Shown: positions 2,719 through 7,803 of the stretch, in pieces
Position numbering within the stretch: the stretch's first letter is position 1
Layout of the letters: each line of letters opens with the position of its first letter
Assembly (NCBI GenBank): GCA_002296055.1
Contig: DBHE01000119.1
Coordinates: forward strand, 14,198 to 26,239
DNA length: 12,042 bases
Source: Pseudomonadaceae bacterium UBA836
GTDB taxonomy: Bacteria; Pseudomonadota; Gammaproteobacteria; Pseudomonadales; Pseudomonadaceae
Direction of reading: 5' to 3'
Notes under the pieces: generated by a model
Databases searched by the model: none
What the model saw: only the letters and a program-made list of their open reading frames with translations
What the model was told of the DNA's origin: nothing
Translations under genes and position numbers: made by a program

Positions 2719-2747
2719 ATTCTAGCTTGATTTGTTAACAAAGGTAA
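2719..2747 (-). promoter_or_regulatory. Probable sigma-70 promoter of pcnB–folK
   Basis: On the minus strand, TAGAAT (2724-2719, five of six matches to a -10 box) lies 17 bases after TTACCT (2747-2742, a poor -35). The spacer region overlaps a perfect 12-base palindrome, TTTGTTAACAAA (2731-2742), which could be an operator. Transcription would begin near 2712, giving a leader of about 138 bases before pcnB. The site lies just past the candidate crcZ terminator, so pcnB need not depend on crcZ transcription. The interval 2575-2718 shows nothing else I recognise. Confidence 0.5.
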
Positions 2748-2777
2748 GAAAGGGGGGGATGTTACGTAGGGAAGGAA

Positions 2778-3130
2778 AGCTCAAGGGGAGTAGGGCACTC
2801 CCCCTAATGGTTTTTTATTATTGTTTTTATGAGAGCTATTCTTTTTTTGTTCAAAGCGGCAAACGCCGCTTTCCGACTGACCCATCTCGGGTTGTCAAAA
2901 CCAAACGGATTGCTTTGGAAGCTTAGGTTCAGAGCGGCCTGCGTATGGCTTTGGATGGCGGGTTGCTTGGGCAACTTTTATTCTTCTTCATCCAAGTGAG
3001 CGTCCTGCTCGCGATCTGACTGCTATTCTCCAAAAAAATCAGTTTGCTGCGTCTCTCACATCTTGTTTTTATTGTGTGTGGAGTCGAATGTTATTTTTGT
3101 TATGTGTTTTGGTTTTTATTGTTGTTGTGC
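2778..3130 (-). ncRNA. crcZ: CrcZ, Hfq/Crc-titrating small RNA
   Basis: CrcZ sequesters Hfq/Crc and so relieves carbon catabolite repression in pseudomonads. No protein gene explains this 600-base gap, and it occupies the known crcZ position between cbrB and pcnB. Read on the minus strand from 3130 it begins GCACAACAACAATAA, close to the CrcZ 5' end as I remember it. It carries about six A-rich stretches of the AANAAYAA type that Hfq/Crc bind: near 3111-3128, 3090-3103 (ATAACAAAAATAAC), 3061-3078 (CAATAAAAACAAG), 2974-2988 (AAGAAGAATAAAAG), 2841-2852 and 2811-2830 (AAAAACAATAATAAAA). An 8-bp hairpin (2853-2872, AAAGCGGC/GCCGCTTT) separates some motifs. A sigma-54 promoter fits the 5' end. Length is about 350 nt against roughly 400 in P. 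aeruginosa. The 5' end is well supported; the 3' end is estimated. Confidence 0.88.
2785..2803 (-). terminator. Candidate crcZ terminator hairpin
   Basis: A 7-bp stem (2785-2791 with 2797-2803, GGGGAGT/ACTCCCC) has a 5-base loop. On the minus strand it is followed by TTGAGCTTTCCTTCCC, which is pyrimidine-rich but lacks a clean T run. It is the only strong hairpin between the last A-rich motif and the pcnB promoter, so it is the best candidate for the crcZ 3' end. Confidence 0.5.
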
Positions 3131-3140
3131 CAGATATAAA

Positions 3141-3156
3141 GCATTCGGCGTGCCAA
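3141..3156 (-). promoter_or_regulatory. Sigma-54 promoter of crcZ
   Basis: The minus strand reads TTGGCACGCCGAATGC from 3156 to 3141. This has the -24 GG (3154-3153) and -12 GC (3142-3141) separated by exactly 10 bases and matches the YTGGCACG-N4-TTGCW consensus except for one base (ATGCT for TTGCT). The start site expected 12 bases downstream falls at 3129-3130, where GCACAACAAC begins. In P. aeruginosa and P. putida, crcZ is transcribed by sigma-54 RNA polymerase activated by CbrB. Together with the upstream half-site array and CbrB encoded next door, this makes the assignment strong. Confidence 0.9.
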
Positions 3157-3213
3157 CTTTTTAAATTCCTTTAAAAACAGTGGCTTGCGATTTTTGGTGG
3201 TTTTGAGAGGGGG

Positions 3214-3336
3214 TGTTACCCCTGGATGTGTTACCGCAATCGGGGGGTAAGTGTTACCTCGGTGGCTGGTTGGGGTAACAGTTTTGCGGGAACTTTAGCG
3301 GTAACAGGTAACACATGCGCAAGGATGGGGTGTTAC
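3214..3336 (-). promoter_or_regulatory. Upstream activating region with seven TGTTAC/GTAACA half-sites (probable CbrB sites)
   Basis: Seven exact copies of one hexamer occur within 123 bases. On the plus strand, TGTTAC starts at 3214, 3229, 3252 and 3331, and GTAACA at 3275, 3301 and 3308. A degenerate GTAAGT begins at 3247. Several start-to-start distances are exactly 23 bases (3229-3252-3275 and 3308-3331). Relative to the crcZ start at about 3130, the array lies at -84 to -206, the usual place for a sigma-54 enhancer. From memory, CbrB sites are TGTTAC/GTAACA palindromes, but I cannot confirm the preferred spacing here. The neighbouring 3158-3177 segment is an AT-rich inverted repeat (TTTTTAAA/TTTAAAAA). 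Confidence 0.8.
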
Positions 3337-3341
3337 AGGTT

Positions 3342-3374
3342 GGCAGGGGTGGCGAGTGTCAGCCGGCCCCTGCC
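3342..3374 (-). terminator. Hairpin after cbrB without T tract
   Basis: GGCAGGGG (3342-3349) pairs with CCCCTGCC (3367-3374), and an inner GGC/GCC extends the stem. It begins 15 bases after the cbrB stop. On the minus strand the downstream sequence is AACCTGTAACACC, with no T run. It is therefore either a weak terminator or an mRNA 3'-end stabiliser, and cbrB transcripts may read through into the crcZ upstream region. Confidence 0.45.
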
Positions 3375-3389
3375 GTTGCACTGGCGGGA

Positions 3390-4817
3390 TCAGGTGCTGG
3401 CGGTTTTCTTACGCGGGATGCCCAGACGCTGACGGCGTTCCCACAAGCACTTGCGGCTGATGCCTAGCTTGTGCGCCAGCTGGGTTTCGGTCATGTGGTC
3501 CTGATGCTCCAACACAAAGTGCTGGAAGTAGTCCTCCAGCGACAGGTCTTCTGCCGGCTCCTGGCCTGGCGTGACGTCGTGCTGCATGGTCTGCAGGGCG
3601 TTGGCAGCTTCGGAGGCGCGCTCTATCTCTGCATCCAGCTCAATGCCCAGCAGGTCGGCGGTGATCTCGTCGTGGTCGCAGAGAATGGCTGAGCGCTCAA
3701 TGGCGTTTTCCAGCTCACGCACGTTACCGGGCCAGCTGTAGGCCAGAATCGCCTGCTCGGCATCCCTGCTGAAGTGCAAACCTTCCATATTCATGTTGCC
3801 AGCGGCGCGTTGCAGCAAGGCCTCGGCGATCAGCATGACGTCGCGGCCACGCTCTCGCAGCGGTGGCAGGCGCAGCTCGATCACGTTCAGTCGGTAGTAC
3901 AGGTCTTCGCGGAACAGGCCTTGGCGCGCCATGGTCTTGAGGTCGCGGTGGGTTGCCGCGACCAGACGCACATCGACCTTTTGGGATTGCACTGAACCAA
4001 CCCGGCGGATCTCGCCTTCTTGCAGCACGCGCAGCAGGCGCGCTTGCGCTTCGAGTGGCAGCTCGCCGATTTCGTCGAGGAACAGGGTGCCGCCGTCGGC
4101 GGCCTCAACCAGACCGGTGCGGTTGCTGGTGGCGCCGGTAAAGGACCCCTTCTCATGACCGAACAGCTCGGACTCGATCAGGGTTTCCGGAATGGCGGCG
4201 CAGTTGACCGAAATCAGTGGTGCCTTGGCGCGCTGTGACTGTTCATGCATGGCCCGGGCTACCAGCTCCTTACCGGTGCCGGATTCACCTTGAATCAGCA
4301 CGGTGGAGTCGGTGGGCGCGACCTTGCGAATGCGCTTGAACAGCGTGAGCATGGTGTCGCAGCCGCCAATGATGCCCATCTGCTTGCGAATGTCATCGTC
4401 TTGCATCGGCTGCGGCTTTTGCTTGCCAGTGGGTTGTTCCGCTGCGGCAGCTTGCTGCTTGCGTTCGCTGCCGCTGGCAATGATGCGTTGCACGGTTTCG
4501 ACCATTTCATCGTGGTCGAAGGGCTTGGCAATGTAATCGACCGCGCCCAGCTTCATCGAGTCAACAGCCGAGCGCAGGCTGGCGTAGCTGGTCATGATCA
4601 GCACCGGCGTGTTGGCGGCGCGGCGTATCAGCTCAGTGCCGGGCTCGCCCGGCAGGCGCAGGTCGCTGATGATGAGATCAAAGCTGTCCAGGTTGTGACG
4701 CTCGCAGGCTTCGCCGACGGAACCGGCTTCGGCCACTTGGTAGTGGTGACGCTCCAGCAGCCGCTTGAGTGCCGTGCGGATGATGGCTTCGTCTTCAACA
4801 ACCAGAATGTCTGACAT
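3390..4817 (-). CDS. cbrB: Sigma-54-dependent response regulator CbrB
   Basis: CbrB is the NtrC-type partner of kinase CbrA. When phosphorylated it activates sigma-54 promoters, chiefly crcZ, and controls use of amino acids and other secondary carbon sources. The 475-residue protein has a receiver domain (about 1-115; D52 phosphoacceptor in SDLRLPG, K98 in KPF). An Ala/Gln-rich linker (about 118-140) follows. The AAA+ domain (about 148-390) has Walker A GESGTGKE (177-184), Walker [12 protein letters not shown] (244-254) and the arginine-rich [11 protein letters not shown] block. A Fis-type helix-turn-helix ends the protein (about 441-468, [20 protein letters not shown]). The sigma-54 contact loop reads GSFTGA (224-229) instead of the usual GAFTGA. 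The start at 4817 has a good ribosome site (GAGGTA, 5-base spacing) and lies 34 bases after cbrA, in one operon. Strong match to pseudomonad CbrB. Confidence 0.97.
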
Positions 4818-4851: not shown

Positions 4852-7803
4852 TCAGGCAGAGGCGCCGCTAGCGCTCATGCTGTAGCGCGGCAAAGTAATG
4901 GTGAAACGGGTGCCGCGCTGGTTTGTCTGGTCGACCGGGCTGTCGATGGTGATCTGCCCATAATGCTCTTCGATGATGGAGTAGACCAGTGCCAATCCGA
5001 GCCCGGTGCCTGTCCCTGGTTCCTTGGTAGTGAAGAAGGGCTCGAACAGGCGGTCCATGATCGCCTTGTCGATTCCGCTGCCCTGATCCTCAACCTGCAG
5101 CAGCACTTGATGCTCGTTTTCCTGGCTGGCAATGCTGATGCTGTCGCCGTTCTGGCTGGCATCACGGGCATTACCCAGCAGATTGATCAACACCTGCACC
5201 AGCCGTTGGGCGTCGCCGGCGACCAGGTGCTCGGGACGGCACAGGTTAACATACTTGACCTCCGGCCCCTTGCGGTTGAGCGAGAGCAGGTGAATAGCCT
5301 CGTTGGTACAGGCCGCCAGATCAACCGGCTCGTTGGGGTTGTGATGGCGGCTGCCAACGTGGGCGAAGTTGACCAACGACTGCACGATGCGCGAGACCCG
5401 GCGGGTCTGGTCGAGGATCTGCTCGCTGGCCTCACGTGCCTCGGGCTGTTCTGACTCATCGCGCAGGTTTTGCGCCAGACAGGCGATACCGGTGATCGGG
5501 TTGCCGATCTCATGCGCGACCCCGGCGGCCAGGCGGCCAATGGAGGCCAGGCGCTCGGAGTGCATCAACTCCTCTTCCAGCATTTGGGTTTCGGTCTGAT
5601 CTTCGATCAGTAGCACCAGGCCGCTGCTCCCAACGTAGCCGGGCTCGTCGATGGCTGCCTTGTGCAGGCTGAGCCATTGGGTGTGGCCGTTGATGCTGAG
5701 CTTCTGTTTATGCAGATGGGCAGATTGATCTTCGACAAAGCGTTCCAGCAGCTCACGCCAGGGTTCGGGCAGGCTGCCCAGGCGAGAGCCGATCACGCTG
5801 TCGGCTTCGATGCCGGTGAGTGCCTGCATCGCGCGGTTCCACATCAGGATTTCGCTGTCTTGCCCCAGTGAGCAAACGCCCATCGGCAGGTCCTGCAGGG
5901 TCTGGCGGTGGTAGCGCCGCAGGGCGTCGAGCTCGGCAGCCAGGCCGGTCAGGCGGCTGTGGTAGTCCTCCAGCCGGTTTTCGATAAAGTGGATGTCCTC
6001 AGTCATGTAGCCGTCGCGACCCATCTTGAACGGCAGGAAGGTCTCGATGATGTCCTGTGCCACCGAGGGGCCCATCAGGCCAGACAGGTTGGCCTCCAGG
6101 CGGTCGCGCAGGCGACGCAGGGCGTAAGGGCGGCGCTCATCAAAGGGCAGCTTGAGATCGCGTAACGCCTGCTCGACTTCGTACTGTGCGGTCTTGTTGC
6201 CGAGCGGTTTGGCTAGCTGTTGGGCAAACTCCTGCGGCGAAGATGCCATCAGTTGCATGCGTTGGGGGCGGCTGACGTTGTCGACCGAGCAGGCCTCGGC
6301 CGCGCTTTGTTCCTCGCTGGAGCGCTGTGTGAACAGGGAGATCACGGCCAGCACCAGCACGTTAGCGGCCAGCGAGCTGATGGCCGCCAGATGCCAGGTG
6401 TCTGCGTTGAAGGCCAGTGTCATGCCGAACAGCTGCAGGCCCGGCAGCTCGGTGACCAGCGGCAGCAGCAGGGTAATACTCCAGACCAGCATGCCGGCCA
6501 TCACCCCGCCGATAAAGCCGCGCCGGTTGGCCTGCGGCCAATAGAGTACCGACAGGGTGCCGGGCAAAAACTGCACCGTGGCAACGAAGGACGCGATACC
6601 CAGGTTGGCCAGATCCTGCTCGGCGCCGAGCAGCCGGTAAAAGCCATAGCCTGCCATGATGATGGCGGCAATCAAGGTGCGGCGGGTCCATAGCAGCCAG
6701 CGGTAGATATTGTTGTCGGCGCTGGGTTGATACAGCGGCAACACGACATGGTTGAGCACCATGCCCGACAGCGCCAGAGTGATGACAATGATCAGGCCGC
6801 TGGCTGCCGACAAACCGCCAACAAAGGCCAGTAGCGATAGCCATTCGGAGCCGGCTGCAACCCCAAGGCCAAGGGAGAAATACTCCGGGTTGGTGCGCAC
6901 ACCCAGGTGCAGGCCAGCCCAGAGGATCGGTGGCACGGCCAGACTCATCAGCAGCAGGAACAGCGGTAGCCCCCAGCTGGCTGTGCCCAGTGCGCGCGGG
7001 TTGAGGTTCTCGGTAAAGGCCATGTGATACATGTGCGGCATTACAAAGGCGGCGGAAAAGAACACCAGCAGCAGCGTCCGCCAGGGGCCTTCCTGCAGCG
7101 GTGTATGCAGGGTGATCAGCGCTTCCTGGTTGTTGTTCAGCCACAACTGCAAACCCTGCGGGCCGTCGAATACCACATACAAGGCATACAGGCCGATAGC
7201 GGCGATGGCGACCAGTTTGACCACCGACTCGAAGGCAATCGCCATCACCAGACCTTCATGCTTCTCCCGGGCCGAGATATGGCGCGCACCGAACAGGATG
7301 GCAAACAGGATAATCAGCACGCAGAAGCCGAGGGCTACGGTGCCTTGGCCGGATTCGTCGGTCAGGATTTGCACCGAGTCGGCGACTGCCTGGATCTGCA
7401 GGGCCAGTAGCGGCAGTACACCCACCAGCATGAACAGCGTGGTGAGGGTGCCCGCCCAGGTGCTGCGGAAGCGAAAGGCAAAGAGGTCGGCCAGAGACGA
7501 TAGCTGGTAAGTGCGGGTAATGCGCAGGATCGGGTTAAGCAGCACCGGTGCCAGCAGAAAGGCGCCACACACGCCCAGGTAGTAGGTCAGAAACCCGTAC
7601 CCGTATTGGTAGGCCAACCCGACCGTGCCATAAAACGCCCAGGCGCTGGCGTACACGCCAAGCGACAGGGTGTAGACCGCAGGGTGTCGCAGCAAACCGC
7701 GTGGAACGTGCCCGTTCTCAGTGGCCCAGGCCACACCGAACAGCAGGATCAGGTAGACAATGCTGATCAGCAGCAGCTGACTCAGCTCAAAGCTCATCGG
7801 CAT
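4852..7803 (-). CDS. cbrA: Transporter-fused sensor histidine kinase CbrA
   Basis: CbrA is an inner-membrane sensor that phosphorylates CbrB. Residues 1 to about 490 are a polytopic sodium:solute symporter (SLC5-like) domain with many hydrophobic helices; in Pseudomonas it has been reported to take up histidine. A STAC-type linker follows (about 505-560). Next come a coiled stretch, a PAS domain (about 635-735), HisKA with phosphoacceptor H764 in GVAHEIGNP, and a HATPase domain with N box NLLGNARDA (from 874), G1 DQGSGI (906-911), FEPFFTTK and GTGTGLGL. All catalytic boxes are intact, so the kinase should be active. Length (983) agrees with the family. Two in-frame ATGs are possible, at 7803 and 7797 (MSFELSQ). 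The second has GAAAG at 6-base spacing and may be the true start. The 5' end overlaps cbrX, and cbrB follows after 34 bases. Confidence 0.96.
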   Translation of the reverse strand: MPMSFELSQLLLISIVYLILLFGVAWATENGHVPRGLLRHPAVYTLSLGVYASAWAFYGTVGLAYQYGYGFLTYYLGVCGAFLLAPVLLNPILRITRTYQLSSLADLFAFRFRSTWAGTLTTLFMLVGVLPLLALQIQAVADSVQILTDESGQGTVALGFCVLIILFAILFGARHISAREKHEGLVMAIAFESVVKLVAIAAIGLYALYVVFDGPQGLQLWLNNNQEALITLHTPLQEGPWRTLLLVFFSAAFVMPHMYHMAFTENLNPRALGTASWGLPLFLLLMSLAVPPILWAGLHLGVRTNPEYFSLGLGVAAGSEWLSLLAFVGGLSAASGLIIVITLALSGMVLNHVVLPLYQPSADNNIYRWLLWTRRTLIAAIIMAGYGFYRLLGAEQDLANLGIASFVATVQFLPGTLSVLYWPQANRRGFIGGVMAGMLVWSITLLLPLVTELPGLQLFGMTLAFNADTWHLAAISSLAANVLVLAVISLFTQRSSEEQSAAEACSVDNVSRPQRMQLMASSPQEFAQQLAKPLGNKTAQYEVEQALRDLKLPFDERRPYALRRLRDRLEANLSGLMGPSVAQDIIETFLPFKMGRDGYMTEDIHFIENRLEDYHSRLTGLAAELDALRRYHRQTLQDLPMGVCSLGQDSEILMWNRAMQALTGIEADSVIGSRLGSLPEPWRELLERFVEDQSAHLHKQKLSINGHTQWLSLHKAAIDEPGYVGSSGLVLLIEDQTETQMLEEELMHSERLASIGRLAAGVAHEIGNPITGIACLAQNLRDESEQPEAREASEQILDQTRRVSRIVQSLVNFAHVGSRHHNPNEPVDLAACTNEAIHLLSLNRKGPEVKYVNLCRPEHLVAGDAQRLVQVLINLLGNARDASQNGDSISIASQENEHQVLLQVEDQGSGIDKAIMDRLFEPFFTTKEPGTGTGLGLALVYSIIEEHYGQITIDSPVDQTNQRGTRFTITLPRYSMSASGASA

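What the first reader, a model, noticed from the sequence alone, without database searches (positions are those of the whole stretch)
3141..3336. Seven half-sites with 23-base phasing upstream of a sigma-54 promoter
TGTTAC/GTAACA occurs seven times exactly within 123 bases, with repeated 23-base start-to-start distances and both inward and outward facing pairs (17 bases between hexamers at 3252/3275 and 3308/3331). A hexamer is expected by chance far less than once in such a span. This is more elaborate than a single NtrC-type palindrome and suggests stepwise loading of CbrB oligomers on one enhancer.
Basis: partly seen in the sequence, partly recalled or inferred. Interest (0 to 1): 0.7.

Follow-up and report, generated by a model that had tools for sequence, protein, structure and literature searches.

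The report
Expanded CbrB enhancer before crcZ
The seven repeated six-letter words are very probably docking sites for the regulator CbrB in front of the gene for the small RNA CrcZ: an enlarged version of a control region already known in Pseudomonas, with a core and an extra upstream element kept across the sampled species of this genus.

Summary
The seven TGTTAC/GTAACA hexamers at 3214-3336 are real and not chance: 0 of 20,000 local shuffles reached seven. They lie between cbrB and the sigma-54 promoter of crcZ and work on the minus strand. In crcZ orientation they read R'-F-F-F1-R1-R2-R3. F1-R1-R2 is the CbrB subsite trio already dissected by mutation in P. putida (PMC6296734, passages), so the CbrB reading is well founded but largely known. 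Stepwise loading cannot be tested here. In 36 crcZ loci of the genus, five of the seven sites are conserved. An exact F upstream of F1 is in 36 of 36, against 0 of 76 named loci outside the genus. R' (5 of 36) and R3 (7 of 36) are local; 3 of 36 have seven exact sites. A by-product: outside the genus, in 63 of 76 named loci, R2 sits in the loop of a terminator-like hairpin after cbrB; in 65 of 76 it is predicted to fold as a GUAA tetraloop. By the same strict test it is found at 0 of 36 genus loci and 0 of 27 crcY-type promoters. Verdict: new variant of a known kind.

The parts
3141..3156 (-). sigma-54 promoter of crcZ, TTGGCACGCCGAATGC (-24/-12)
   Evidence: conserved at the same place in the 36 genus loci aligned; about 12 bases upstream of the Rfam CrcZ 5' end
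3175..3187 (-). IHF-like site CAAGCCACTGTTT (2 mismatches to YAANNNNTTGATW, a consensus recalled from memory)
   Evidence: same fixed position with at most 1 mismatch in 33 of 36 genus loci and 58 of 76 named others; 8-9% of shuffles reach that; the window itself has 2 mismatches
3214..3219 (-). half-site R3 (GTAACA in crcZ orientation), local: exact in 7 of 36 genus loci
3229..3234 (-). CbrB subsite R2 (GTAACA); exact in 18 of 36, GTAACG in the other 18
3252..3257 (-). CbrB subsite R1 (GTAACA); exact in 36 of 36
3275..3280 (-). CbrB subsite F1 (TGTTAC); exact in 35 of 36
3300..3313 (-). tandem upstream element TGTTACCTGTTACC: half-sites F at 3301-3306 and 3308-3313; the exact 14-mer is in 27 of 36 genus loci, at least one exact F in 36 of 36, at least two in 31 of 36
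3331..3336 (-). half-site R' (GTAACA), outward-facing, local: exact in 5 of 36
3216..3250 (-). weak hairpin around R2 (predicted -12.2 kcal/mol) without a T run, at the place where other species have the cbrB terminator-like hairpin
2747..3128 (-). CrcZ small RNA (Rfam RF01675, 136 bits, gathering 95)
3390..4817 (-). cbrB: receiver + sigma-54 AAA+ activator; C-terminal KLGISRKCLWERRQRLGIPR
4852..7803 (-). cbrA sensor kinase (PAS, HisKA, HATPase; multi-helix N-terminus)

Best explanation
This is the CbrB-dependent enhancer of the sigma-54 promoter of crcZ, in an enlarged form typical of this genus (Halopseudomonas and kin). Shown here: the half-sites, their conservation, fixed placement relative to the promoter, the IHF-like site between, and the neighbours cbrB and CrcZ. 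Known from P. putida: CbrB protects and needs such subsites, IHF assists, sigma-54 is required. Inferred: CbrB subunits occupy F1, R1 and R2 as the working core; the upstream TGTTACCTGTTACC element adds further CbrB contact, raising occupancy so that crcZ is switched on at low active CbrB; IHF bends the DNA so that the AAA+ ring reaches the polymerase. R' and R3 are optional additions in some species.
For: Exact array, not chance. CrcZ by covariance model and cbrB/cbrA upstream. Published subsites F1/R1/R2 with the same hexamer and 20-25 base spacing, mutational, EMSA and IHF data (passages). Mean majority identity in the 36-locus alignment: 0.88-1.0 for the five conserved sites against 0.58 for 126 other columns. 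F1 lies 124-127 bases before the GG in 35 of 36 genus loci, and in the exception G040 the array sits about 11 bases (near one helical turn) closer as a block. The CbrB recognition segment is the same within one I/V exchange in the 80 named loci.
Against: No binding or expression data exist for this genus. R' and R3 are no better conserved than background (0.39 and 0.48 against 0.58). The two upstream F sites are 7 bases apart, so two subunits may not fit side by side; they may be alternatives. F1-R1 is N17 here, outside the published N12-14. The IHF-like site of the window itself has 2 mismatches. Pfam's list for this CbrB shows no HTH family at E 1e-3.
Confidence: 0.88

Rival explanations
1. 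Only F1-R1-R2 work; the extra half-sites (upstream FF, R', R3) are by-standers left by local duplication.
For: In P. putida one extra perfect F' site and one extra R' site were dispensable (passages). R' and R3 are not generally conserved. TGTTACCTGTTACC looks like a 7-base tandem duplication.
Against: The upstream F element is in 36 of 36 genus loci with majority identity 0.88-0.94 in otherwise variable DNA, which by-standers would not keep; several loci keep two F sites at altered spacing.
Confidence: 0.25
2. Stepwise or cooperative loading of CbrB dimers or hexamers along all seven sites.
For: Repeated 23-base steps; many sigma-54 activators use several sites (recalled; NorR's three sites are mentioned in PMC6296734, passages).
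Against: Seven sites are the exception (3 of 36). Steps of 7, 15 and 26 do not fit one 23-base register. Published work (passages) found no CbrB oligomers in solution and accumulative subsite effects.
Confidence: 0.15
3. The upstream FF element serves another protein or another promoter that happens to share the hexamer.
For: The element is genus-specific and lies 26-33 bases from F1 with some variation.
Against: Same 7-mer as the CbrB core sites, between cbrB and crcZ; no second sigma-70-like promoter was found at 3000-3500 (simple scan).
Confidence: 0.06

Closest known systems
CbrB subsites F1/R1/R2 at P. putida crcZ, crcY and PP2810 (PMC6296734; consensus TGTTAC-N12-14-GTAACA-N15-19-GTAACA in PMC8871633)
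   Same: Same hexamer, same F-R-R order, 20-25 base centre spacing, IHF between array and sigma-54 promoter, same gene pair.
   Different: F1-R1 gap N17 in the window (N16-17 in 36 genus loci) instead of N12-14; an added tandem F element upstream in 36 of 36; R' and R3 in a few. Note that 33 of 76 named loci outside the genus also exceed N14.
NtrC/NorR-type sigma-54 enhancers
   Same: Several sites upstream of a -24/-12 promoter, AAA+ activator, looping.
   Different: Half-sites 22-23 bases apart instead of one compact palindrome (NtrC and NorR details recalled or from passages).
Intrinsic terminator after cbrB in other Pseudomonadaceae
   Same: Occupies the R1-R2 stretch of the same enhancer.
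   Different: Not found in this window or its genus by the strict test.

Membership tests
CbrB-activated crcZ promoter | CrcZ RNA downstream and cbrB upstream in synteny | tested here: met
   cbrB adjacent at the 36 genus crcZ loci counted
CbrB-activated crcZ promoter | sigma-54 promoter GG-N10-GC at the RNA start | tested here: met
CbrB-activated crcZ promoter | F1, R1, R2 subsites, 20-25 bases centre to centre | tested here: met
   23 and 23 bases; genus F1-R1 22-23, R1-R2 22-23
CbrB-activated crcZ promoter | review consensus gap F1-N12-14-R1 | tested here: not met
   N17 in the window; N16-17 in 36 of 36; but N15-18 in 33 of 76 others too, so the published range looks too narrow
CbrB-activated crcZ promoter | IHF site between array and promoter | tested here: inconclusive
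   genus and family: fixed-place match (33 of 36; 58 of 76); window itself 2 mismatches
CbrB-activated crcZ promoter | CbrB binding and CbrB/RpoN-dependent expression | not testable with these tools
   needs EMSA/footprint and reporter
single NtrC-type palindrome | compact inverted repeat (half-sites about one turn apart) | tested here: not met
   half-sites 23 bases apart, in both relative orientations
enhancer overlapping the cbrB terminator (seen in other species) | stem with T run enclosing R2 | tested here: not met
   0 of 36 genus loci incl. window; no minus-strand terminator-like site at 3000-3500

The most novel reading that the evidence does not exclude
In many Pseudomonas relatives the CbrB subsite R2 doubles as the loop of the cbrB terminator (as RNA, a GUAA tetraloop), so that ending the activator's own transcript and activating crcZ use the same letters and may interfere: CbrB on R2, or cbrB transcription through it, would set read-through into crcZ. 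This window's genus has lost the terminator and instead carries an enlarged CbrB array, so that crcZ depends more on bound CbrB or on unterminated cbrB transcription.
Probability: 0.25. Interest if true: 0.6.

Novelty: new variant of a known kind. Interest (0 to 1): 0.42.

Why it matters
CrcZ sets the strength of carbon catabolite repression in Pseudomonads. A natural series of promoters with the same core but different numbers of CbrB sites lets one ask, in one genus, how many subsites a sigma-54 enhancer needs and how they act together. The overlap of R2 with a terminator-like hairpin makes a testable link between cbrB read-through (known in P. putida and A. vinelandii) and CbrB action.

Tried and rejected
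Chance: rejected by shuffles. Genus-wide conservation of all seven sites: rejected (3 of 36). A search for the F-F-F pattern over 390 genomes of the order gave matches in 39; many are plain tandem repeats, and apart from the window none was shown to be at crcZ; I inspected only one of the others by ORFs (L161, between folK and panB), so this search says little. It drew no other member of the window's genus.

Terminator as a mere CbrB-binding palindrome: argued against, since 27 family crcY-type promoters have no such terminator (0 of 27) and 35 paralogue loci pair no better than slid controls (0.389 against 0.356-0.415). Against my terminator reading: terminator loss alone does not bring the array, since 13 of 76 named and 17 of 33 family crcZ loci lack the strict terminator around R2 and have no upstream F. 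The covariation test is mixed: paired cells 793 of 945 (shuffle maximum 753) and double-change cells 74 (maximum 50) exceed 500 shuffles, but the number of pairs with a double change (7; mean 6.2, maximum 9) and of pair types (22; mean 22.3) do not. GGG 8-10 bases before R2 is common in paralogues too, so part of the stem may serve CbrB. The 6th base of R2 is G in 79 of 79 loci with the terminator, but G is also common without it (NG 13 of 13, FZ 11 of 17, genus 18 of 36), and genus g18, with a relocated terminator-like hairpin, keeps G in 4 of 4; so G is no proof. A relaxed scan (G-T pairs, weaker T run) finds hairpins upstream of R2 in 4 of 36 genus loci. One count (R' = 7) came from a slicing error at two short gaps; the right number is 5 of 36. 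Rows dropped: of 80 named loci, L033 and L034 belong to the genus, L065 is too short, L036 has no exact F1-R1 pair: 76 left. One of 37 genus genomes (G046) had no crcZ match.

Full report
What is there. The window holds folK/pcnB-side genes, then CrcZ (2747-3128, minus; Rfam RF01675, 136 bits), cbrB (3390-4817, minus) and cbrA (4852-7803, minus), and beyond them gluQRS and dksA. The seven hexamers lie in the cbrB-crcZ gap. The sigma-54 promoter TTGGCACGCCGAATGC is at 3156-3141 on the minus strand, so the array must be read on the minus strand: R' 3336-3331, F 3313-3308, F 3306-3301, F1 3280-3275, R1 3257-3252, R2 3234-3229, R3 3219-3214.

Is it chance? In 20,000 dinucleotide shuffles of 3141-3389 the mean was 0.21 and the maximum 3. 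In the whole window 10 hexamers occur, 3 outside the cluster. In the held genome (83.9% complete) an exact TGTTAC-N8-24-GTAACA occurs at two places: this one, and one between an FKBP-like gene and a convergent ORF (the reversed control pattern gave 1 per strand).

Where it comes from. NCBI's taxonomy copy still lists P. neustonica under Pseudomonas.

Conservation in the genus. CrcZ was found in 36 of 37 genus genomes, 35 above the cut-off. In 36 loci next to cbrB: F1 exact in 35, R1 in 36, R2 exact in 18 and with one mismatch in 18, an exact F within 40 bases upstream of F1 in 36, two or more in 31, the 14-mer TGTTACCTGTTACC in 27. R3 is exact in 7, R' in 5; seven exact sites in 3, six in 6, five in 5, four in 20, three in 2. 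Mean majority identity is 0.88-1.0 in the five conserved sites, 0.39 and 0.48 in R' and R3, 0.58 in 126 other columns.

Outside the genus. Of 80 named CbrB loci (the best 80 of a capped list), 76 could be compared. F1-R1 start distances are 20 (43), 21 (18), 22 (7), 23 (4), 24 (4); R2 is present with one mismatch in 76 of 76; no exact F lies within 60 bases upstream of F1, coding DNA included. Of these, 18 have an upstream R within 70 bases of F1 and one at 70. In 33 further crcZ loci from genomes drawn evenly from the family, none has a second exact F at -200 to -100, nor do 27 crcY-type promoters; among 9 paralogue promoters of the genus itself, 2 have two F sites and 1 has one. So the upstream F element is, in this sample, a feature of the genus. 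The gap upstream of F1 is also longer in the genus (median 83.5 against 41.5 bases).

Placement. F1 starts 124-127 bases before the GG of the promoter in 35 of 36 genus loci and 122-127 in 74 of 76 named others; the exceptions lie at -115 (G040) and -137 (two loci), about one helical turn away. The IHF-like site sits at one fixed place with at most one mismatch in 33 of 36 and 58 of 76, whereas 8-9% of shuffles reach that anywhere in the stretch. The window's own copy has two mismatches.

How it probably works. PMC6296734 (passages) reports for P. putida that substitutions in F1, R1 or R2 lower crcZ expression, that R2 matters most there, that CbrB binding to the crcZ probe is lost with any of them, that IHF is needed, and that no CbrB oligomer was seen in solution. 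PMC8871633 (passages) gives the consensus and says spacing is rather conserved. The CbrB recognition segment KLG(I/V)SRKCLWERRQRLGIPR is found in the 80 named loci (50 with I, 30 with V), so I carry this over. The added upstream element most likely adds CbrB contacts; its 7-base tandem may be two alternative seats for one subunit. This step is inference.

A by-product: the terminator. In the named loci outside the genus the R1-R2 stretch reads like AAAGCCGGG...GGTAACG...CCCGGCTTTTTT. A strict test (perfect stem of at least 6 with 4 GC pairs, loop up to 22, T run) finds it around R2 in 63 of 76; 16 of 33 family crcZ loci; 0 of 27 crcY-type promoters; 0 of 36 genus loci. R2 is GTAACG in 76 of 76, and RNAfold predicts GUAA as a tetraloop closed by two pairs in 65 of 76, 18 of 33 family crcZ, 5 of 35 paralogues and 4 of 36 genus loci. 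Stem pairing in the expected register is 0.754 of cells against 0.618 at best for slid registers in the named loci; paralogues 0.389 (slid 0.356-0.415) and genus 0.438 (slid 0.347-0.446) show none. Against 500 shuffles two of four measures exceed, two do not. The likely meaning is an intrinsic terminator of cbrB placed on top of the crcZ enhancer. Read-through from cbrB into crcZ is known in P. putida (PMC8871633, passage) and A. vinelandii (PMC6292655, section 22 read). In the genus of the window the hairpin is gone or reduced. Terminator loss does not by itself bring the array (see Tried and rejected).

In print? I searched for cbrB+crcZ+terminator (14 papers listed), cbrB-crcZ read-through and Halopseudomonas with crcZ/CbrB, and looked at passages of PMC6296734, PMC8871633, PMC6292655, PMC11406991, PMC5429807, PMC4063720 and PMC8395346. 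None of those passages states the overlap of R2 with a terminator or a multi-site array in Halopseudomonas. PMC5429807's Figure 1 legend marks terminators as stem-loops, but the figure is not held. Two likely key papers are not held, so I cannot say that the overlap is unpublished.

Verdict. Observation confirmed; CbrB enhancer reading supported and largely known; the seven-fold number and stepwise loading are not the general point. What is new here is the genus-wide upstream F element, the wider F1-R1 gap, and the overlap of R2 with a terminator-like hairpin elsewhere.

Noticed in passing
L161 about 1501-1540, between folK (914-1396) and panB (1719-2519): Three to four TGTTAC half-sites close together; the same kind of pattern match occurs in five of 17 other same-family genomes (G183, G247, G287, G326, G343), of which only L161 was inspected. 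Possibly another CbrB-type array.
   Followed up: partly
L223, L228, L229, L230 (genus g18): Terminator-like hairpin TGTAGCC...GGCTACATTTTT downstream of R2 (-66 to -40) instead of around it: the cbrB terminator seems to have moved.
   Followed up: partly
window 3390-4817 (CbrB C-terminus): No helix-turn-helix Pfam family is listed at E 1e-3 although the C-terminus looks like a Fis-type HTH.
   Followed up: no
L032 974-1003 (window genome contig C211): The only other exact TGTTAC-N18-GTAACA in the held genome, between an FKBP-type gene and a convergent ORF; probably chance.
   Followed up: partly
genus genomes G003, G004, G005, G007, G008, G020, G023, G045, G047: A second CrcZ-like RNA away from cbrB, with its own sigma-54 promoter and CbrB-like sites; the genomes with six or seven exact sites at crcZ are not among these nine. 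Absence of a second copy was not tested beyond the Rfam model.
   Followed up: partly
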